Source: an uncultured archaeon (GTDB lineage Archaea; Micrarchaeota; Micrarchaeia; CABMEP01). From it: DNA of 37,050 nt. The position numbers were made by a program, and so were the translations under genes. The DNA lies in the NCBI GenBank assembly GCA_902385155.1, contig CABMEP010000042.1, forward strand, positions 1 to 37,050. The letters are read 5' to 3'. The notes under the pieces were generated by a model that saw only the letters and a list, made by a program, of their open reading frames with translations, was not told the DNA's origin and made no database searches. This document shows, one piece after another, positions 25,885-37,050 of the stretch. Within the stretch, counting starts at the first letter, position 1, and every line of letters starts with the position of its first letter.

Positions 25885-28800
25885 ATGATGTCCTTAGCGC
25901 CAGGTCAGATACGAGGGCCGCAGCGGCCCCAATGCCAGACTGTTCCATACGTTATTTCATTGGCGCTATCGTTTCTATTCCTTTTCGGGACAGTCTCCGC
26001 TTTAACGTGGACATCTGAAAATTTAGGCAATACCGGAGGATTCACGTATGGGACATCTATAGCCACAGATAGTAGCGGCGTTCCCCATATCGCTTACTGC
26101 GCCGGCAACGGTCTTCACTATGCCAATAAGTCCGGTGGTTCCTGGTCCGACGCTCTAATCGATTCATATTGCCGTGGCACCGAGATCGCGGTCAATTCTA
26201 CGGGCGACGTCAGTATCATATATGGGAATTCCACCGCAGTGAAATACGCGTACAAGCCGAGCGGCGGATCCTGGACCAAGGAAGTGATTGAGAATTCGGA
26301 CGATATCACATACAACACCGATGCAGGTAACTCGATCCAGCTTGATTCCAACGGCGTGCCGCACGTATGTTACTCGAACTCGAGTTGGTCCGTGAAATAT
26401 GCAAATCGTACAGGCGGATCCTGGTCATCGGAAGTGATAGAATCATCGGCCAATCGTCTTGTGAAATGTCATATCGCATTGGACAACTCCAATGTGCCTC
26501 ATGTCGTGTACGGGGATTTCTCCACAGGGCAGCTGAAATACGCCAACAAGTCCGGCGGCTCCTGGTCGTACATGGTCCTCAACTCAAGTTCAGGCGCGCA
26601 AAACAGGCCGACCATAGCGATAGGCGGCGACAATGTCCCGCGTGTCGGATTTTACATCAATAACGACGGAATCAAGTATGCGGCACGGAGCGGGGGCACC
26701 TGGTCGTTCGCCTCGGTTTATAGCGCCGGATCCGGTCTGAGCGACGCGTCCATCGCGGTTGATTCCTACGGCATACCTCACATGAGCTTCAAGTACTACA
26801 ATGGGACCAACCAGTATCTCTGGTATGGGAACGGAACTCCGAATTCCTGGGGGCCGCAATGGACTGCCCAGCTAGTGGACCCATTGGCCGGCGCAGGATC
26901 CACTGATTCGATCGCAATCGATTCGTCCAATTATGTCCATATCATCCACGCGTATTACAATTCAACCTCCGGCACGAATTTCATAATTTACGATAAGTCC
27001 ACCACACCTGCCGTAGCTCCGTCGCCGATGTGCACCGATATCACTACTCCGAACACCGTCTATAACATGACGGGAAACATAACTGTGGCAGACATCCCAT
27101 GCTGTTCCGCCAAGAATTGCTTCAACATCATGGCGAACAACGTCACATTAGATTGCAAAGGCTACACGATAACCTACGCCCAAAACTCCAACAACCTACG
27201 CGCGATCGGTTCCGGGTATAACTACACCACGATAAAGAACTGCAACCTCGTCCAGAACACTGCCAACGGCGGCGGCAACTATGCCATCATATTGTCTGGA
27301 TCCAACAGCAACCTGATCAAGGACACTAACGTTTCGGTTGCGTCCTCCTCAACGTACGGAGTGCAGCTTTCGTCAGTATCTAACACTACATTCTCAAACT
27401 TAATTGTTAACACTACAGGCGGGGGAAATTATCCGTACGGATCGAGCGCATTCTATCTTTCCGGCTGTTCCAATGTAACGATAACAAACAGCAGCATGAA
27501 CGCATCAGGGGGCAACAGCAACGCAATCTATCTAATATCGTCATCCAACAATGTCAACATTACGAAATGCAATATGAACGCAGGTTCATTCGGAATTTAT
27601 TTCGAGGCAAGCTCAGATAATGTGTTCATCAATGCAAGCAACATAACCGCTTCCAATGGGTTGTACATCACCGCGAGCAAGAACAGCACGGTGATGAACA
27701 GCAACATCTCGACTTCCGGGGGAGGCTATGGCGGCATCTACCTCTCTCCAACCTCATCCAGCAACACGGACAACCACACGTTCATGAACAATACGATCTC
27801 GGTGACAGGTAACGGCCGCGCGATTCAAGTTGCGTCTTATTCGTATGGCGTCAACAACATGACCATCGCATATAACAACATATCGATAACGAACGGCTCC
27901 TCCAGCAGCTACTCCGCTCTCTATTTCTACTACTCCAACTCCACCAATATCTCCGGGAACCGCATATTCGCCATAGGGAACGGATCCGGCATAAAGCTCG
28001 ACACCTATTCCACCAACAACTTGATATACAACAACTACATCTACGGCGATCCGCCTGCGACAATCACCGATACTTCTTTGAACCGCTGGAACACCACGTT
28101 CACCTGCGGCGCGGGCATCCGGAACATCGTCGGGGGCAACTGCACTGGCGGGAATTACTATGCGAATCCGACGGGTACTGGGTTCTCTGAGGCGTGCACC
28201 GTTAACATGACGACCGGCCTATGCACGAGCACGTACCCAATCGCCACGAACAACATCGACTACGCACCCGTGACGATCATACCGCCGACCTGCGGGGTGT
28301 TCGACGCCTCCGGCACCTACACCATGAGGAGCGACCTCGCGAGCAACGGGACATGCATCAACATCACTGCGAGCGACGTCGTCTTCGATTGCAACGGCTA
28401 CACGATCAATTACTCGCAGAACGGCACAGGATACGGGATATACGCCAACGGCGTCAACGGCACCGTCATAAAGAACTGCAACATACAGCAGACTAATTCC
28501 AGCAACCCCGATTCCCCTGCGATCTACCTGTCTGGAACCAACGGCGGCGCGATCCAGAACATCAATGCGCTGGCGACAGGTTCGGGCAGCTATGGTTTGT
28601 ACCTGTCCAATACCAACAACAGCAACGTCACGGGCGGATTCTTCGTAAGCTCGAATTCCTTCGGCCTATACATCGATTCGTCCAGCTCAGGCAACCGCAT
28701 ATTCAACAACATCATAACTGGCATCATCGATCCGGTCTCTCTCAACTCGGCCGGGACGAACTACTGGAACAGCGTGCCCACGGCCGGAATCAATATACTC

Positions 28801-31800
28801 AGCGGCCCGTGGATCGCGGGCAACTACTACGCCAATTCAACCAACGGCGGTTTCTCGCAGAACCCGGCGAACTGCACGGATGCCAACGGCGACGGAATCT
28901 GCGATAGCAACTATGTCCTCGATTCCAACAACATCGACTACCTGCCGCTGACCGCATCCGCCTCTCCCGTCCAGCTCACGGGCTGCGGCAACCTCGCTTC
29001 CCCTGGCGTATATGTTCTTTCCAAGGACATCAGCAACGCAGGCACGTGCTTGAATGTCCTGGCGGACAACGTTACGATATACTGCCAGGGACACACGATC
29101 AAATACTCGCAGTCGGCGACAGGATACGGTGTCAATTCGACCAATTACAACAATACGGCGGTCAAGTACTGCACCATCCTCCAGAATTCGACGAGTGGAA
29201 GCGCATATGCGGTATACTTCTCGGGGGTCAATGACGGCGTCATCCTAGGCAACACGATGACCACGTTCGGCGCAAGCAGCTACGGCGTGTACCTGCCTTC
29301 GAATTCGAACAACAACATGCTTTCGGATAACATCATCACGACAGGCACGAACAATTTCGGGTATGGGATCTATCTCGCTTCCAGTTCCAACAACAATACG
29401 ATCGCCAGGAACAGGATAACCACAAACGGTTATGCCAGCTATGGGCTGTACATCTCGTCATGCAGTGCCATCAATACATCAAACAACAACATTTCCGTCA
29501 GCCAGTTCGGAACAGCCGCCATCAACACAGCGTCAACATCATACAGCACCCTGGCGAACAACAACGCGACCGCAGGCGACGGGTACGGCATTGCGGTAGG
29601 GGGAGACGACAACAATATAGTCAACAATTCGGCGGTGATCAGCAGTTCTGTCGGGGGCACCGCGGGAATCGGCGTGAGCGGGAACAGGAATAGCATAATG
29701 AACAACAGGGCGACCGCAAGCGGCACCACAATCTACGGTTTCTCCATCTCATCCGGAACGAACAATACCGTAACGGGCAATACGTTCTCCAGCGCGAGCT
29801 CATTCGGCGCCTATGTGGCCGGAACAGGCAATCTGATATACAACAACCGCATTAACGGCAGCACCCCGGTCTATGTTCCCTCGGGCTCTCAAAACAATTG
29901 GAATTCCACCACGTCTGCCGGAGCCAATATTGTAAATGGACCATACATCGGGGGCAATTACTATGCAAACACAGCAGGCACAGGGTACTCCCAGGGCTCG
30001 TCCTGCACCGATACCAATGGCGACGGCATCTGCGACGCCAGCTACACCATAAACGGGTCGAACAACGTCGATTCATTCCCGCTCAAGATGCCGACGGCGC
30101 TGTCCGGCTGCACCAACATCTCCTACGTAGGCGCCTACTATCTCAATCAGAGCGTCAGCAACTCCAGCACATGCTTCACGATCAAGTCGAACAACGTCAG
30201 CCTGGAATGCGCAGGCAAGACCATCAACTACTCGGCATCCGAGTTCGGCTACGGGATCAACTCCACCGGCTACAACAAGACGCTCGTCGGGGACTGCAAC
30301 ATAGTCCAGTCCAATGCGGGAGTCTCCAGCGCTCATGCGGTGTATCTCGCCAACGCCAACAACAGCGCCATCCAGAACAGCAACGTCTCGGTCAACAGCA
30401 CCAACGCGAATGCGATCTACCTGTCGAATTCCAACAGCAGCAACATCACCGGCAACATGCTCGCCAGCGCGAATTCCTATGGCGCGTATCTCGTCTCCGG
30501 CTCCGGCAACCGAATATTCAACAACCTGTTATACGGGAACAACAGCCCGGTCGGCCTGAGCTCCGCGGGCGCGAACGCATGGAACACGACGATGGCGCTC
30601 GGACCCAACGTCATCGGCGCGCCATACATCGGAGGGAATTTCTATTCCAATTCGAGCGGCACCGGCTTCTCGCAGGCCTGCACCGCGAACGCCTCCAGCG
30701 GGTTCTGCACCGCATCCTACGACCTGGGCGACGGGGTGAACGTCGATTCCCTGCCGTTGACGACGCTGGCCCCCAATTCGCTGGCCTCCTGCACGAACCT
30801 GAACCAATCCAATACAGGATACATCCTGATGAGGGACATCAGTTACGGGGCAGGCACATGCTTCACCGTCACGGCCGACAACATCACGCTGGACTGCATC
30901 GGCCATGCCGTGACGGGCGTCAGCGGCTACGGGGTGAACCTCAACGGCAGGTCGAACATCACGGTATCCAACTGCGCGTTCGCCGGATTCTCCACAGGGA
31001 TATACATGCCGTCCGGTTCGGGCTACAACATAGCCGCGAACAACATCAGCTCCAGCGTCAACGGCATCTACGTCAACGCCAGCGCCAACACGATAGCCGG
31101 CAACAGGCTGGCCTCGAACACGAACGGCATCCTCGTGAACTCGGGCTACAACAACACGATCACTAACAACACGTTCGTCTCGAACACGAACGGCATCTAC
31201 CTCAATGTCACTGCCACGAACACCACTATCGCGAACAACACCGCCAGTTGGAGTACTGCAAGCGGAATCTACCTCCTCTCAAGCTATAACACTATATACA
31301 ACAATACACTCTATAGGAACCTGCTGAATGGAGCGTACTTCTCTGCTTCTTCGAACAACACCATAACAAGCAACAACGTCAGCTGGAATGGCGGCACTTG
31401 TTTCGAGGGCTGCGGCAGCAACAACCCCTACGGCGGTTACGGTGTCTACTTCGATTCAGGTTCCAATAACCTCATCGCCAACAACACTGTCAGCTGGAAC
31501 GGCGGAGGCAACACCAGCGTCTACGCGCAGCCATTCGGTTACGGCCTTTATCTCTTTAACAGCTCCAACAACAATACAATCTTCAACAACAATGTCACCT
31601 ACAACGGCGGCAACACCACCGCCAATTACGCTTCTTGCACCGGCTACGGCATCTACATCAACAACGGTACCAACAACAACGTCTCCAATAACAACGCCAC
31701 TTCGAACCTCAATTGCACAGGCACAAGCAGCAATATGTACGGCCAGGGAATCTATCTCGGCGCCGCCTTCAACACCACTATCGCCAACAACTACATCGGC

Positions 31801-34800
31801 AACCACAGCTATTATGGCATCTACGTCTTCAACTATTACACTGGCTCGAACAACACCATCTTCAACAACACTATAATTACTGGTTCAGGCTTAAACCCAC
31901 GGGGAATATACTCTGTCTACGATTCCAACAGCACAATCTCCAACAACACCATCCAATTCGGTAATGTTGGAATCTCACTTGCCCACACCTCAAACCTCAC
32001 CATCTCAAACAATACCGTCAGCCTTGCCAGCGGCGGCTACAACAAGGGCATCTATTTCGATACCTCCTCTAACAACAGGATATTCAACAACATCTTCAAC
32101 AACAGCGAAAATGCCAATGATTACAGCGGCACCAACAACGTCTGGAACGCCACCCTCGACTGCACCGGTCCGGCCAACATCGTCGGCGGCCCATGCATGG
32201 GCGGCAACTACTGGGCCGCGCCTGCGGGCACTGGCTTCTCAGAGGCACAATCCTCATGCAACTCGAACGGAAGCGGCATATGCACCTATTCGTACGGCGT
32301 ACCGAGCTCCGGAGGCAATGATTACCTTCCATTGACTCTGCTCCCGATCTCGCCAGGCAGCACGTTCAGCGCCCCTGGCTTCGTCTACAACATGACCCAG
32401 AACTTCAGCAGCAACGGCACCGCCTTCACCATAGCGGCGAGCAACGTCACGATCGACTGCTTGGGCAACACCCTCACCGGCAACGGTTCCGGCAATGGCA
32501 TGACGAGCACAGGCAGCTACACGAACCTAACGGTGAAGAACTGCGTCATCAGGAACTTCAGCAATGCGATCTATTTCGGTGCCGGGATCACCTACAGCGC
32601 GATAACGAACAACACCCTCAGCGACAACGGCTTCGGCATCGATCTCAACGGGAGCTTCGGCAACACCAACAACATCGTCATCGCCAACAACACAGCCAGC
32701 AACAACAGCCAGTACGGCATAGGCCTCATCTCGGTGGTATCCGAATACAATTGGGCGAACACCGTAGCGAACAACACCGTCACCTCAAACGGCTATGGTC
32801 TCGGGTTCATCTACAGCTCGTACAGCGGATGGACAAATATCTACAATAATAAATTCAATAATAGTATCAATGCAATCACAGACAGCTACACCGCCCTGTG
32901 GAACACCACGATGAACTGCAGCGGTCCAGCAAACATCATAGGCGGCCCCTGCATGGCCGGCAATTACTGGGCCACCCCGTCCGGCACAGGATTCTCGGAG
33001 AACGCCACCGCGTGCAACGCCAACACCAGCGGAATCTGCACGTCGAACTACGTCATAAACGGCAGCAACATCGACTACCTGCCGCTCACCGCGCCGCTTG
33101 TGCCGTTCAACTGCAACACGCTCAACCAGCCCAACACAACATACACCATGAACCAGAACGTCAGCAGCGCAGGCACATGCTTCACGATCGCGGCGGACAA
33201 CGTGACGCTCGACTGCAATGGATATATGATCAATTACTCGCAGTCCGCGGCGGGATACGGCATCAACATCACAGGATACAATTCCACTACCATACAGAAT
33301 TGCAATGTCATACAAAATTCATCTTATGCATACTCGTACGGAATTTATCTTAAAAATGCGAATAACAGCGTAGTCAAAAACACCAATGTTTCAGTAAACA
33401 GCTCATTCAGCAATGGTGTGCGCCTCGATTCCAACGCTATCAACAACACGTTCACCAATGATATCGTCAACAGCAAGAACGGTTATGGGACATACATCCT
33501 TTCCAACTCCAATAACAACACATTCACCAACAACACCCTAAACGGCTCACTCAGTTGGAGTGGCGTGATAATCCAGTCCAGTGCCAATAATACCATTTAC
33601 AATAATATGATTAGTTCAGTTGGTTTCAGCGGTACGCGATACACAAACAACTGGAACACCACCCTCAACTGCAGCGGCGCAACCAACATCATCGGCGGAC
33701 CATGCATAGGTGGTAACGTCTATATCCCCCCCTCGGGGTATGGGTTTTCGTCGATGTGCCTTGATCTGGACGGCAACGGCGTCTGCGACAGCAGCTATGC
33801 TCTCTTCTCCGGTGATGTGAATAACACCGATTATCTCCCGCTCGCAACTCCGCAGACCCCGATCTCCAGCTGCAGCAACATCTCCTATACAGGCAGGTAC
33901 ATACTCACTCAAAACGTCAGCAACGCGACCACCTGCTTCAACATCCTCTCTGGCAACGTCGACCTGAACTGCAACGGGAGCACGGTCTCGTATGCCACGT
34001 CCGCCGCCGGATACGGGGTTCAGAATCCAGGCAGCCCGAACGTGACCATACGCAACTGCAACATCGTGCAAGGCTCTTCCGTGAGCGGCGCGCACGGCGT
34101 ATACCTCTCCTCTTCGGGCTCCGGGAACAACCTTGTCATGAAGAACAACATCTCCGTGTTCGGGAACAGCGCGTACGGGATCTACTTCAGCGGATCGACC
34201 GAAGGCATGGCGCTGAACGACAACTTCTCAGACAACCGCATCAACACGACTGGGACCAATTCGCACGGATTCAGGCTGGATCGGCTCGCCAACAGCGTCG
34301 TGGCGAGGAACAACGTCACCGTGAACGGGAACTATTCCTACGGCGCCAATGTCTTCAGGTCCGCCAGCAACAACATCACCGGCAACAGGATGGTCTCCAC
34401 CGGTTACGCCCAAACTGCGTGGTACCTCTCCTATTCTACTTCGAACAACTTCATAAATGAGACAATAATCACGAGCGGGAATTACAGCAACGGCCTGAAT
34501 TTCGGGACCAGCTCGAGCAGCAACAGCTTCACGGGCGCCAGCATCACCACGAGCGGCGACGGCGCTGTCGGGATGTACATATGGTCGAGCTCGTCCAACA
34601 ATTTCGCATACAACAACATCACCACGTATGGCGGCGGTTCCCCGGGCGCATACGGCATACAAGTGGAATCGGCCGCCTCGTCCAATAACTTCACGAACAA
34701 CCGTATAATGACGAACGGATCCGGTTCCTACGGCGCGTACATCAGGTATAGCTCCACCACCAGCAACCTCCTGGCGAACAACACAATACTCTCGCCGTAC

Positions 34801-37050
34801 ACCGCAGCCATAGCGATGGACCAGGGGACGACCGGCAACAGCCTGTTCAACAACAACCTCAATTCCACCGACGGGGTCGTGTTCACGAACGGCGCAGCCG
34901 CCAACAACTGGAACACCACGCTCAACTGCGCGGGCCCCGCCAACATCGTCGGCGGCGCCTGCATCGGAGGCAATTTCTACGCGAATCCCGCGGGAACGGC
35001 CTTCTCGCAGAACGACGGCCTCTGCCATGCGAACGCCTCCGGCCTCTGCGCCAGCAACTACACTCTTGCGGCCGGCAACATCGACTACCTGCCGCTGACA
35101 CTCATATCGCCGCCAACGCCGCTCGCAGCGTGCGGGACGATCGACCAGGCCAATACGATCTACATCCTGACGCAGAACGTCTCCAGCCCCGATACCTGCT
35201 TCACGATAGCGGCGAACAATGTCACCCTCGACTGCAACGGATACACGATCACCGGCCCGGGCAGCTCGGGCTACGGGATCAACAACAGCGCCGGCTTCGA
35301 CTACGTCACCGTGCAGAACTGCGCCATCACGAGCTTCAACATAGGCATCAATTTCGCGAACGGAACCCGTTACAGTGCGATCTTCAACAGTAATGTCAGC
35401 TCGAACAGCCAACACGGCATATACCTCTTCTCCAGCCCCGACAACGTCATCACCAACAGCACCTCCAACAACAACTCGGGCACGAGCCACTACGGCATCT
35501 ACGTCATATCCAGCAACAATACCGTCATTTCCAACAGCGCCGCCAACTCGAACTACTGGGGAATCGCCCTCTCCTCCAGCGGGAACAGCACCATCATCAA
35601 CTGCACCGTAAACTCGAACACCAGATACGGCATCCGCATCTCCTCCTCCAATAACAACATGATCTCCAACAATACCGTCAATTCAGACGGCAACGAAGGG
35701 ATCTACCTCTCCTCCAGCTCCAGCAACACAATATACAACAACAATGCCAGCTCGAGCGGAGACGGCATCCGCCTCGAGAACTGCAACGGCAACAACGTCA
35801 CCCGCAACACCGTCAGCTCGAACAGCAACGGAATCTACCTCTATGACAACGCCAACAGCAACACGATCGCCAACAACAACGTCAGCAACAACAGCCAGTA
35901 CGGCATCCGGCTCTACACCAACGCCAACAGCAACACGATCGCCAACAACACATTCATCAACAACAGCGTGCACGGCATCAACCTCGCCTCCAGCTCGAGC
36001 AACGTCTTCTACAACAACTTCCTCAACAACTCCCAGAACGTCCAGAGCGACGGCTCGCTGAACTACTGGAACACCACCATGGCCGCCGGCACCAACATCG
36101 TCAACGGCCCGTACATCGGGGGCAACTTCTGGGCGAACCCGTCCGGCACGGGATACTCCGAGAACCCAGACTACTGCATCGCGAACGGCTCCAGCGGGTT
36201 CTGCACCATACCATACTCCATCGACGGCAGCAACATCGACTACCTGCCCCTGACGCTGCTGCAGCCGCCGGTATCGCTCGCAGCCTGCGGGACGCTCAAT
36301 CAGGCCAATAGGCTGTATATCCTGACGCAGGACGTGAGCTCCAATGCCGGCTGTTTCGTCGTCTCCGCGAACGGCGTGATGCTCGACTGCGCCGGCCACA
36401 CGATCAATTATTCGAGGACTTCGTCCGGATACGCCATAGACTTCTCATCGACGCTTTCGGGCGTCACGGTCAAGAACTGCATCATCACGCAAGGAGGCGC
36501 CTACAGTTACGGATCCGGCGTGAACGTCTACTCTGGCTTTGCTACGGCAGACAACGACCGGTTCATCAACAACACGATAACCACGTCGGGCAACTATTCG
36601 TATGGATTCTCCATCACAACTTCTTCTGTCTACAATTTCAACAATATAACATACTATAACAACAAGATCAATACCAGCGGATACCAGTCTCACGGAATCT
36701 CCCTCAGCAATGCCACTTCCTGCAACTTCACAAACAATAACATCACCACGGCCGCCAACAACTCGCACGGCTTTTTGATGTTTGGCAGCTCTAACAACGC
36801 GTTCTCGGGCAATGTCATACACACTACGGCCCCGCAGGCATATGGCATGACGTTCTATTCGGCGAGCAACGGCAACCTAATCACGAACAACAACATAACC
36901 ACGTACGGCAACATGGCGCGCGGTTTGTATCTCGATACTTTCTCAAACAACACTGTCGCAGGTAACATCATCAATGCGCTCAACGCGACGACCCATGGAA
37001 TCTCCGTCTTCTCAAGCTCCAACAACCTGTTCTACAACAACGTATTCAAC
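25885..37050 (+). CDS. Giant modular surface protein (at least 3722 codons, 3' truncated by window): signal peptide, beta-propeller, ten NosD/PbH1-type beta-helix modules
   Basis: Frame starting at 25885 read codon by codon with no stop to base 37050; signal peptide PYVISLALSFLFLFGTVSA; repeated LDCNGYTI...GYGI...IKNC, NNxxxNN coils, GGNYYANPSGTGFSxxC, NNIDYLPLT. Not in ORF track because it has no stop in the window. Confidence 0.93.
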   Translation, partial: MMSLAPGQIRGPQRPQCQTVPYVISLALSFLFLFGTVSALTWTSENLGNTGGFTYGTSIATDSSGVPHIAYCAGNGLHYANKSGGSWSDALIDSYCRGTEIAVNSTGDVSIIYGNSTAVKYAYKPSGGSWTKEVIENSDDITYNTDAGNSIQLDSNGVPHVCYSNSSWSVKYANRTGGSWSSEVIESSANRLVKCHIALDNSNVPHVVYGDFSTGQLKYANKSGGSWSYMVLNSSSGAQNRPTIAIGGDNVPRVGFYINNDGIKYAARSGGTWSFASVYSAGSGLSDASIAVDSYGIPHMSFKYYNGTNQYLWYGNGTPNSWGPQWTAQLVDPLAGAGSTDSIAIDSSNYVHIIHAYYNSTSGTNFIIYDKSTTPAVAPSPMCTDITTPNTVYNMTGNITVADIPCCSAKNCFNIMANNVTLDCKGYTITYAQNSNNLRAIGSGYNYTTIKNCNLVQNTANGGGNYAIILSGSNSNLIKDTNVSVASSSTYGVQLSSVSNTTFSNLIVNTTGGGNYPYGSSAFYLSGCSNVTITNSSMNASGGNSNAIYLISSSNNVNITKCNMNAGSFGIYFEASSDNVFINASNITASNGLYITASKNSTVMNSNISTSGGGYGGIYLSPTSSSNTDNHTFMNNTISVTGNGRAIQVASYSYGVNNMTIAYNNISITNGSSSSYSALYFYYSNSTNISGNRIFAIGNGSGIKLDTYSTNNLIYNNYIYGDPPATITDTSLNRWNTTFTCGAGIRNIVGGNCTGGNYYANPTGTGFSEACTVNMTTGLCTSTYPIATNNIDYAPVTIIPPTCGVFDASGTYTMRSDLASNGTCINITASDVVFDCNGYTINYSQNGTGYGIYANGVNGTVIKNCNIQQTNSSNPDSPAIYLSGTNGGAIQNINALATGSGSYGLYLSNTNNSNVTGGFFVSSNSFGLYIDSSSSGNRIFNNIITGIIDPVSLNSAGTNYWNSVPTAGINILSGPWIAGNYYANSTNGGFSQNPANCTDANGDGICDSNYVLDSNNIDYLPLTASASPVQLTGCGNLASPGVYVLSKDISNAGTCLNVLADNVTIYCQGHTIKYSQSATGYGVNSTNYNNTAVKYCTILQNSTSGSAYAVYFSGVNDGVILGNTMTTFGASSYGVYLPSNSNNNMLSDNIITTGTNNFGYGIYLASSSNNNTIARNRITTNGYASYGLYISSCSAINTSNNNISVSQFGTAAINTASTSYSTLANNNATAGDGYGIAVGGDDNNIVNNSAVISSSVGGTAGIGVSGNRNSIMNNRATASGTTIYGFSISSGTNNTVTGNTFSSASSFGAYVAGTGNLIYNNRINGSTPVYVPSGSQNNWNSTTSAGANIVNGPYIGGNYYANTAGTGYSQGSSCTDTNGDGICDASYTINGSNNVDSFPLKMPTALSGCTNISYVGAYYLNQSVSNSSTCFTIKSNNVSLECAGKTINYSASEFGYGINSTGYNKTLVGDCNIVQSNAGVSSAHAVYLANANNSAIQNSNVSVNSTNANAIYLSNSNSSNITGNMLASANSYGAYLVSGSGNRIFNNLLYGNNSPVGLSSAGANAWNTTMALGPNVIGAPYIGGNFYSNSSGTGFSQACTANASSGFCTASYDLGDGVNVDSLPLTTLAPNSLASCTNLNQSNTGYILMRDISYGAGTCFTVTADNITLDCIGHAVTGVSGYGVNLNGRSNITVSNCAFAGFSTGIYMPSGSGYNIAANNISSSVNGIYVNASANTIAGNRLASNTNGILVNSGYNNTITNNTFVSNTNGIYLNVTATNTTIANNTASWSTASGIYLLSSYNTIYNNTLYRNLLNGAYFSASSNNTITSNNVSWNGGTCFEGCGSNNPYGGYGVYFDSGSNNLIANNTVSWNGGGNTSVYAQPFGYGLYLFNSSNNNTIFNNNVTYNGGNTTANYASCTGYGIYINNGTNNNVSNNNATSNLNCTGTSSNMYGQGIYLGAAFNTTIANNYIGNHSYYGIYVFNYYTGSNNTIFNNTIITGSGLNPRGIYSVYDSNSTISNNTIQFGNVGISLAHTSNLTISNNTVSLASGGYNKGIYFDTSSNNRIFNNIFNNSENANDYSGTNNVWNATLDCTGPANIVGGPCMGGNYWAAPAGTGFSEAQSSCNSNGSGICTYSYGVPSSGGNDYLPLTLLPISPGSTFSAPGFVYNMTQNFSSNGTAFTIAASNVTIDCLGNTLTGNGSGNGMTSTGSYTNLTVKNCVIRNFSNAIYFGAGITYSAITNNTLSDNGFGIDLNGSFGNTNNIVIANNTASNNSQYGIGLISVVSEYNWANTVANNTVTSNGYGLGFIYSSYSGWTNIYNNKFNNSINAITDSYTALWNTTMNCSGPANIIGGPCMAGNYWATPSGTGFSENATACNANTSGICTSNYVINGSNIDYLPLTAPLVPFNCNTLNQPNTTYTMNQNVSSAGTCFTIAADNVTLDCNGYMINYSQSAAGYGINITGYNSTTIQNCNVIQNSSYAYSYGIYLKNANNSVVKNTNVSVNSSFSNGVRLDSNAINNTFTNDIVNSKNGYGTYILSNSNNNTFTNNTLNGSLSWSGVIIQSSANNTIYNNMISSVGFSGTRYTNNWNTTLNCSGATNIIGGPCIGGNVYIPPSGYGFSSMCLDLDGNGVCDSSYALFSGDVNNTDYLPLATPQTPISSCSNISYTGRYILTQNVSNATTCFNILSGNVDLNCNGSTVSYATSAAGYGVQNPGSPNVTIRNCNIVQGSSVSGAHGVYLSSSGSGNNLVMKNNISVFGNSAYGIYFSGSTEGMALNDNFSDNRINTTGTNSHGFRLDRLANSVVARNNVTVNGNYSYGANVFRSASNNITGNRMVSTGYAQTAWYLSYSTSNNFINETIITSGNYSNGLNFGTSSSSNSFTGASITTSGDGAVGMYIWSSSSNNFAYNNITTYGGGSPGAYGIQVESAASSNNFTNNRIMTNGSGSYGAYIRYSSTTSNLLANNTILSPYTAAIAMDQGTTGNSLFNNNLNSTDGVVFTNGAAANNWNTTLNCAGPANIVGGACIGGNFYANPAGTAFSQNDGLCHANASGLCASNYTLAAGNIDYLPLTLISPPTPLAACGTIDQANTIYILTQNVSSPDTCFTIAANNVTLDCNGYTITGPGSSGYGINNSAGFDYVTVQNCAITSFNIGINFANGTRYSAIFNSNVSSNSQHGIYLFSSPDNVITNSTSNNNSGTSHYGIYVISSNNTVISNSAANSNYWGIALSSSGNSTIINCTVNSNTRYGIRISSSNNNMISNNTVNSDGNEGIYLSSSSSNTIYNNNASSSGDGIRLENCNGNNVTRNTVSSNSNGIYLYDNANSNTIANNNVSNNSQYGIRLYTNANSNTIANNTFINNSVHGINLASSSSNVFYNNFLNNSQNVQSDGSLNYWNTTMAAGTNIVNGPYIGGNFWANPSGTGYSENPDYCIANGSSGFCTIPYSIDGSNIDYLPLTLLQPPVSLAACGTLNQANRLYILTQDVSSNAGCFVVSANGVMLDCAGHTINYSRTSSGYAIDFSSTLSGVTVKNCIITQGGAYSYGSGVNVYSGFATADNDRFINNTITTSGNYSYGFSITTSSVYNFNNITYYNNKINTSGYQSHGISLSNATSCNFTNNNITTAANNSHGFLMFGSSNNAFSGNVIHTTAPQAYGMTFYSASNGNLITNNNITTYGNMARGLYLDTFSNNTVAGNIINALNATTHGISVFSSSNNLFYNNVFN
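26041..27000 (+). other. Predicted 7-bladed beta-propeller domain in the giant protein
   Basis: Seven copies of a (S)IAxDSxGxPHIxY-like motif (near 26056, 26179, 26326, 26467, 26608, 26740, 26911) with interleaved YANKSGGSWSxEV. Confidence 0.6.
27010..37050 (+). repeat. Ten successive Cys-bearing PbH1/NosD modules (nine complete) of roughly 225-530 aa
   Basis: Module starts near 27010, 28262, 28951, 30082, 30751, 32335, 33091, 33841, 35098, 36247; each opens with xxC...TCFxIxANNVTLDCNGxTI and closes with GGNYYANPSGTGFSxxC...C...NNIDYLPLT. Confidence 0.8.
35847..35950 (+). repeat. Near-identical tandem coil unit, 72 bp (24 aa) period
   Basis: caacgccaacagcaacacgatcgccaacaaca occurs at 35847-35878 and 35919-35950. 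Confidence 0.85.

What the first reader, a model, noticed from the sequence alone, without database searches (positions are those of the whole stretch)
28090..36180. All-or-none covariation of a cysteine pair across module closing motifs
In the closing motif WNTTxxCxGxxNIVGGxCxGGN, five modules carry both cysteines (28111/28141 area TC..NC; 32158 DC..PC; 32920 NC..PC; 33667 NC..PC; 34924 NC..AC). The other four lack both (SVPTAG..GPW; TTSAG..GPY; TTMAL..APY; TTMAAG..GPY). I found no module with only one. This concerted gain/loss predicts a specific disulfide and two module subtypes. When the pair is lost, the second Cys position becomes Tyr or Trp.
Basis: partly seen in the sequence, partly recalled or inferred. 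Interest (0 to 1): 0.78.

Follow-up and report, generated by a model that had tools for sequence, protein, structure and literature searches.

The report
Paired cysteines in beta-helix cap loop
In a giant surface protein of a tiny archaeon, one loop that ends each repeated module carries either two cysteines or none, and the same all-or-nothing pattern holds with rare exceptions across hundreds of related modules, which points to an ordinary disulfide staple at the base of a loop that varies in length.

Summary
Of nine closing motifs in the 3,722-aa ORF at 25885-37050 (+), modules 1, 5, 6, 7 and 8 carry both cysteines; 2, 3, 4 and 9 carry neither. The module is a NosD-like right-handed beta-helix; the motif is its C-terminal cap. 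In 335 distinct homologous caps, 68 have both cysteines, 261 neither and 6 one. At least ten genes mix both types. C1 is almost always at W+6 and C2 at GGN-2, while their spacing runs from 9 to 18 residues; one homologue has about 150 residues inserted between them. A deep-alignment AlphaFold model of the cap is confident (pLDDT 92) and its secondary structure suits a cross-strand C1-C2 pair, but no coordinates were available, so the distance was not measured. A second pair in the module opening is stricter (235 both, 64 neither, 0 single). Paired gain and loss is how structural disulfides normally evolve. The Cys type looks DPANN-specific: 0 of 80 methanogen-group caps. A real, tidy variant of a known fold; modest interest.

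The parts
25885..37050 (+). Giant ORF, 3722 aa, open at the contig end: hydrophobic N-terminal segment, about 340 aa resembling propeller repeats, then nine complete NosD-like beta-helix modules and the start of a tenth
28087..28161 (+). Module 1 closing loop, Cys type: WNTTFTCGAGIRNIVGGNCTGGNYY (Cys codons 28105, 28141)
28765..28830 (+). Module 2 closing loop, Cys-less: WNSVPTAGINILSGPWIAGNYY
29899..29964 (+). Module 3 closing loop, Cys-less: WNSTTSAGANIVNGPYIGGNYY
30580..30645 (+). Module 4 closing loop, Cys-less: WNTTMALGPNVIGAPYIGGNFY
32143..32214 (+). Module 5 closing loop, Cys type: WNATLDCTGPANIVGGPCMGGNYW (Cys codons 32161, 32194); target of the deep-alignment model
32899..32970 (+). 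Module 6 closing loop, Cys type: WNTTMNCSGPANIIGGPCMAGNYW (Cys codons 32917, 32950)
33652..33723 (+). Module 7 closing loop, Cys type: WNTTLNCSGATNIIGGPCIGGNVY (Cys codons 33670, 33703)
34909..34980 (+). Module 8 closing loop, Cys type: WNTTLNCAGPANIVGGACIGGNFY (Cys codons 34927, 34960)
36067..36132 (+). Module 9 closing loop, Cys-less: WNTTMAAGTNIVNGPYIGGNFW
33091..33303 (+). Opening region of module 7 as example: Cys O1-O2 (residues 2410/2432) and O3-O4 (2444/2473; LDC...NC), the second pair being strictly all-or-none in homologues
32338..32560 (+). Opening region of module 6, which lacks both O1 and O2 cysteines (ISPGST...NGTAFTI) but keeps O3-O4: a second all-or-none pair inside the window

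Best explanation
Each module is an exported NosD-like right-handed parallel beta-helix closed by a conserved C-terminal cap (WN...NIxGGxxxGGN[YF][WY]). The cap loop between the tryptophan and GGN comes in two interchangeable types. In one (Cys-less, typically WNTTKTxGTNIIGGPYIGGN) the loop has a fixed length and most often Tyr at the later position. In the other, C1 (W+6) and C2 (GGN-2) form an intra-loop disulfide that staples the base of the loop, so the residues between them can vary in length. The pair is gained and lost as a unit because a lone cysteine there gives no bridge and leaves a reactive thiol in an exported protein. Shown: the sequence pattern, its recurrence in homologues, the length variation, the confident fold of the cap. 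Inferred: export, the covalent bond, its geometry, and its role in tolerating loop length.
For: Pattern in the window. Homologues: 68 both / 261 neither / 5 C2-only / 1 C1-only among 335 distinct caps; Fisher p about 1e-65 on the set cut to below 85% identity, ignoring relatedness. On a tree built without the loop (an earlier set of 322 caps) C1 changes 44 times and C2 45 times on the best tree; only four independent contrasts lie on well-supported branches and all four agree. At least ten genes contain both 'both' and 'neither' caps. C1 is at W+6 in 65 of 68 and C2 at GGN-2 in all 68, while the spacing between them is 9 to 18; Cys-less loops are 17 long in 201 of 265. L072 keeps WNTSYNC...NIIGGSCIGGN with C1 and C2 157 residues apart. 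L058 has a loop of Cys-type length with Ala at both positions (WNTTFNATDKRNIVGGFAIGGN), L295 another with Gln and Tyr, as expected if both are lost in place. Model of the end of module 5 from a 92-sequence alignment: pLDDT 91.9, pTM 0.89, with isolated bridge residues at D101 and M114, right beside C102 and C113; if 101 pairs with 114, antiparallel register puts 102 opposite 113. The ORF is Cys-rich (2.2%), with an even number of cysteines in 8 of 9 complete modules.
Against: No coordinates were returned, so the Cys-Cys distance is unmeasured and the 101-114 pairing is an inference. True single-Cys caps exist: an Aenigmatarchaeota clade with C2 only (L121, L241, L242, L248), L238 (Tyr at C1) and L157 (C1 only). 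C1 and C2 lie within 10-20 codons and neighbouring residues switch too, so block inheritance of a loop cassette would also give co-occurrence. No VKOR and no DsbA-like Thioredoxin_4 match was found in this 83%-complete genome, so how disulfides would be made is unknown.
Confidence: 0.85

Rival explanations
1. Cassette inheritance: two old loop types are swapped or inherited as short blocks by module duplication and recombination, and the cysteines co-occur only because they sit in the same block; no bond need be inferred from the co-occurrence.
For: C1 and C2 are only 9-13 residues apart in most; loop length and the residues at W+4 (K versus Y/L), W+5 and W+7 change along with them; the modules are tandem duplicates.
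Against: Cys-type loops vary in length and interior sequence, yet both ends stay; L072 keeps both across about 150 inserted residues; loops of Cys-type length lacking both cysteines exist (L058, L295). Block inheritance does not explain why single mutants are so rare.
Confidence: 0.1
2. The two cysteines bind a metal ion or cofactor, perhaps copper as the NosD name suggests, and are not disulfide bonded.
For: NosD is annotated as a periplasmic copper-binding protein.
Against: No conserved His, Met or further Cys accompanies the pair in the loop; spacing from 9 to 157 residues is unlike a metal site; the same modules hold other Cys pairs with their own co-occurrence.
Confidence: 0.03
3. The cysteines bridge different modules or different chains (for example C1 of one module with C2 of the next) instead of each other.
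For: Modules are tandem, and single-Cys modules exist in some proteins.
Against: Mixed proteins keep the within-module all-or-none rule; in the window module 1 is Cys type and its next three neighbours are Cys-less.
Confidence: 0.02

Closest known systems
NosD (PF05048; solved as 7o0y and related entries)
   Same: The ORF matches PF05048 with 14 stretches, E 1e-188; all 25 cap sequences tested match PF05048; a profile of the cap reaches the end part of solved NosD, weakly (E 0.04).
   Different: Many tandem modules in one giant chain; the NCBIfam NosD subfamily model scores 104 against a cut-off of 300; the solved chain matches only the GGN-and-downstream half of the cap, not the C1-C2 loop.
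Methanogen proteins with NosD-like beta-helix modules (Methanosarcina, Methanolobus, Methanospirillum and others)
   Same: Same cap motif, typically WNTTKTxGTNIIGGPYIGGNYW.
   Different: No Cys pair in the cap loop in any of 80 Methanobacteriota caps.
Right-handed parallel beta-helix enzymes and tailspikes (Beta_helix PF13229; alginate epimerases 4ozy/4nk6)
   Same: Coil repeat and fold; PF13229 matches with 14 stretches; weak sequence similarity to alginate epimerase coils; fold search returns tailspikes, GH110 enzymes and AlgG.
   Different: Fold matches are weak (best E 0.07, TM 0.46 by query length); no enzyme residues were examined and no enzyme function is claimed.
Subfamily-specific disulfides that stabilise variable regions (PMC2628669)
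   Same: That survey reports that poorly conserved disulfides tend to constrain structurally variable regions and that one or both cysteines often align with gaps in homologues, as here.
   Different: Here the switch recurs between tandem modules of one protein.

Membership tests
NosD-like beta-helix family (PF05048) | Score above Pfam's gathering threshold | tested here: met
   623 bits against a cut-off of 23.6, 14 stretches
NosD proper (nitrous oxide reductase maturation, TIGR04247) | Score above the NCBIfam cut-off | tested here: not met
   103.7 bits against a cut-off of 300; not filed as NosD
NosD proper (nitrous oxide reductase maturation, TIGR04247) | Gene next to nosZ, nosF, nosY | not tested
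   Neighbouring ORFs were listed but not searched by family
Parallel beta-helix repeat proteins (TIGR03804, PF13229) | Repeat hits above cut-off and a predicted ladder of short strands | tested here: met
   TIGR03804 81.8 bits against 19.45, PF13229 374.5 bits; regular short strands, pLDDT 91.9
Structural disulfide C1-C2 | Co-occurrence of both cysteines across homologues | tested here: met
   68 both, 261 neither, 6 single in 335 caps
Structural disulfide C1-C2 | Sulfur or C-beta distance compatible with a bond | not testable with these tools
   Prediction returns no coordinates; the DSSP string alone is suggestive
Structural disulfide C1-C2 | Exported protein | tested here: inconclusive
   Hydrophobic N-terminal segment and 198 N-x-S/T sequons by inspection; no signal-peptide predictor available
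Structural disulfide C1-C2 | Thiol-oxidising pathway in the genome | tested here: inconclusive
   No VKOR and no Thioredoxin_4 match, genome 83% complete

The most novel reading that the evidence does not exclude
The Cys-stapled cap loop is a DPANN-specific, expandable display site: the disulfide fixes the base of a loop at the end of each beta-helix module so that residues or even a whole domain can be inserted (9 to 157 residues between the cysteines), which would let these archaea diversify giant surface proteins used for attachment.
Probability: 0.12. Interest if true: 0.55.

Novelty: new variant of a known kind. Interest (0 to 1): 0.33.

Why it matters
It gives a sequence rule to read likely disulfides in giant DPANN surface proteins, which are poorly characterised and have no close solved structures. 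The cap loop is also a natural experiment, because tandem modules of one protein carry the same scaffold with and without the staple. It does not change any general view, since paired gain and loss of structural cysteines is expected.

Tried and rejected
Single-sequence AlphaFold of module 7: the closing region came out below pLDDT 50 and was not used. Fold search in the PDB with the good model: only generic beta-helix hits, none with E below 0.001. A profile search of the PDB gave 2kzw and NosD for the half after GGN only, so there is no solved C1-C2 loop to compare. Earlier tallies contained parse artefacts such as duplicate anchors, missed tryptophans and false 'neither' anchors, and three of the four C1-only calls are not at the C1 site (L064, and RIC at W+11 in L242 and L248); the cleaned counts are preferred, with L072 set to 'both' by hand after reading its insert. 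The opening pair O1-O2 looked loose (44 O1-only), partly because in 24 of the 44 a cysteine sits four columns earlier. Literature searches found no description of this cap loop or its Cys pair, but the library is open-access only.

Full report
What was checked. The finding lies in one ORF of 3,722 codons (25885-37050, +), which runs off the end of a 37,050-base contig of an 83%-complete, 0.97 Mb genome. Contigs of same-phylum genomes (134,548, 5,863 and 3,013 bases) match in length records named Candidatus Micrarchaeota, so the window most likely comes from a micrarchaeote; this is an inference from contig lengths.

Observation. The nine closing motifs were extracted directly. Modules 1, 5, 6, 7 and 8 have both cysteines and modules 2, 3, 4 and 9 have neither. 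The window therefore shows two loop types. A tree of the nine modules built without the loop has one supported split, {5, 6, 9} against the rest, with both loop types on both sides, so at least two switches happened in this protein.

What the protein is. It matches NosD (PF05048) and Beta_helix (PF13229) with 14 stretches each and the parallel beta-helix repeat TIGR03804, but falls far short of the NosD subfamily cut-off. The first 378 residues have a hydrophobic segment and repeats with only a sub-threshold propeller match. All 25 cap sequences tested match PF05048, and the one shown in full matches its last 33 positions. The cap is thus the C-terminal end of a NosD-type helix, and each module begins with a conserved opening (C...GTCxxIxAxNVTLDCxG...NC).

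Homologues. Caps were collected from the window's phylum, from a scan of one genome per species, from the genomes of 14 of those hits, and from the phyla of a woesearchaeote, an aenigmatarchaeote and a Helarchaeota bin, with flanks fetched. After cleaning there are 335 distinct caps: 68 both, 261 neither, 5 C2-only, 1 C1-only; cut to below 85% identity, 68, 255, 3 and 1. The scan required C, Y or W at C2 but placed no condition on C1, so it cannot create the association. At least ten genes carry both 'both' and 'neither' caps. A tree from such short sequences (322 caps, loop left out) is weak: 44 changes on the best tree, but only four contrasts on supported branches, all concordant. The Fisher p-value (about 1e-65) ignores relatedness and should not be read as a probability.

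Shape of the two loop types. C1 is at W+6 in 65 of 68 Cys loops and C2 at GGN-2 in all; the distance between them varies (11, 10, 12, 13, 9, 18 and 16, in order of frequency). Cys-less loops are 17 residues from W to GGN in 201 of 265 cases. W+4 is Lys in 117 of 201 Cys-less loops and Tyr or Leu in 52 of 68 Cys loops. At the C2 site Cys-less loops have Y 128, N 21, F 16, W 9 of 201. Two informative cases: L072 has WNTSYNC, then about 150 residues without a Pfam match, then NIIGGSCIGGN, so both cysteines stay while a domain-sized piece lies between them; L058 has a loop of Cys-type length with Ala at both sites.

Exceptions. Four Aenigmatarchaeota sequences of one clade have C2 without C1; L238 has Tyr at C1; L157, from a methanogen relative, has C1 alone. 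They are few, but the rule is not absolute.

Other pairs. The opening cysteines O3 and O4 (LDC...NC, 29 columns apart) are stricter still: 235 both, 64 neither, none single in 299 sequences. Where both are missing, one site is small and the other large in nearly all (G/L 22, L/G 11, G/I 8, F/A 7, G/V 7, G/F 6), which suggests that the two residues touch in the core of neighbouring coils. In the window, module 6 lacks both O1 and O2. The downstream pair C3-C4 is looser: 49 both, 33 single, 254 neither by a rough pattern. Complete modules in the window carry 12, 6, 7, 6, 12, 6, 8, 8 and 8 cysteines, even in eight of nine.

Structure. With 92 aligned relatives the end of module 5 folds with mean pLDDT 91.9 and pTM 0.89. 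DSSP marks isolated bridge residues at 101 and 114; C1 is 102 and C2 is 113. If 101 and 114 are bridge partners in antiparallel register, C1 and C2 face each other. The tool lists no partners and no coordinates, so this remains an inference.

Distribution. In the species scan, Cys-type caps occur in Woesearchaeota, Aenigmatarchaeota, an unnamed archaeon that also turns up in the woesearchaeal phylum sample (G304), and three times on one 4.4-kb contig of a Helarchaeota bin, and in none of 80 Methanobacteriota caps. The other 195 Asgard genomes searched gave only weak matches (at most 33 bits), so the Helarchaeota contig may be a misplaced DPANN contig. With the Micrarchaeota results the Cys type looks DPANN-specific. 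Which type is ancestral is not settled.

Judgement. That subfamily-specific disulfides tend to brace variable regions is reported (PMC2628669), and that structural cysteines come and go in pairs is general knowledge. The finding is a neat, new variant on a known fold in poorly studied proteins, not a new principle.

Noticed in passing
window 33091-33303 and equivalent openings of all modules: Opening cysteines O3-O4 (LDC...NC) are all-or-none in 299 homologues (235/64/0), and where lost the two sites become one small and one large residue (G/L, L/G, F/A), suggesting a core contact between neighbouring coils.
   Followed up: yes
L072 (G115:C9), minus-strand ORF: About 150 residues without a Pfam match are inserted between the two cap cysteines of one module.
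   Followed up: partly
L137 (SUPR01000177.1, Helarchaeota bin): Three Cys-type caps on a 4.4-kb contig in an Asgard bin, while the other Asgard genomes searched have only weak matches: possibly a misbinned DPANN contig.
   Followed up: partly
window 37050 (contig end); G000 contigs C7 and C38 (starts), C52: The giant gene is cut by the contig end, and other contigs of the same genome begin inside ORFs with the same caps, so the assembly probably broke in these repeats and the full protein is longer or there are several.
   Followed up: no
window 25885-27018: The N-terminal 378 residues carry repeats of the type SxGxPHIxY...KYANxSGGSW with only a sub-threshold beta-propeller match; probably a propeller-like domain.
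   Followed up: partly
G000 (whole genome): No VKOR and no DsbA-like Thioredoxin_4 match despite a Cys-rich giant protein that looks exported; the oxidation route is unknown (genome 83% complete).
   Followed up: partly
L121, L241, L242, L248 (Aenigmatarchaeota): A clade with C2 but no C1 in the second cap; three of the four have an extra cysteine 101 residues upstream of C2 (IYCSGG) that might be an alternative partner.
   Followed up: partly
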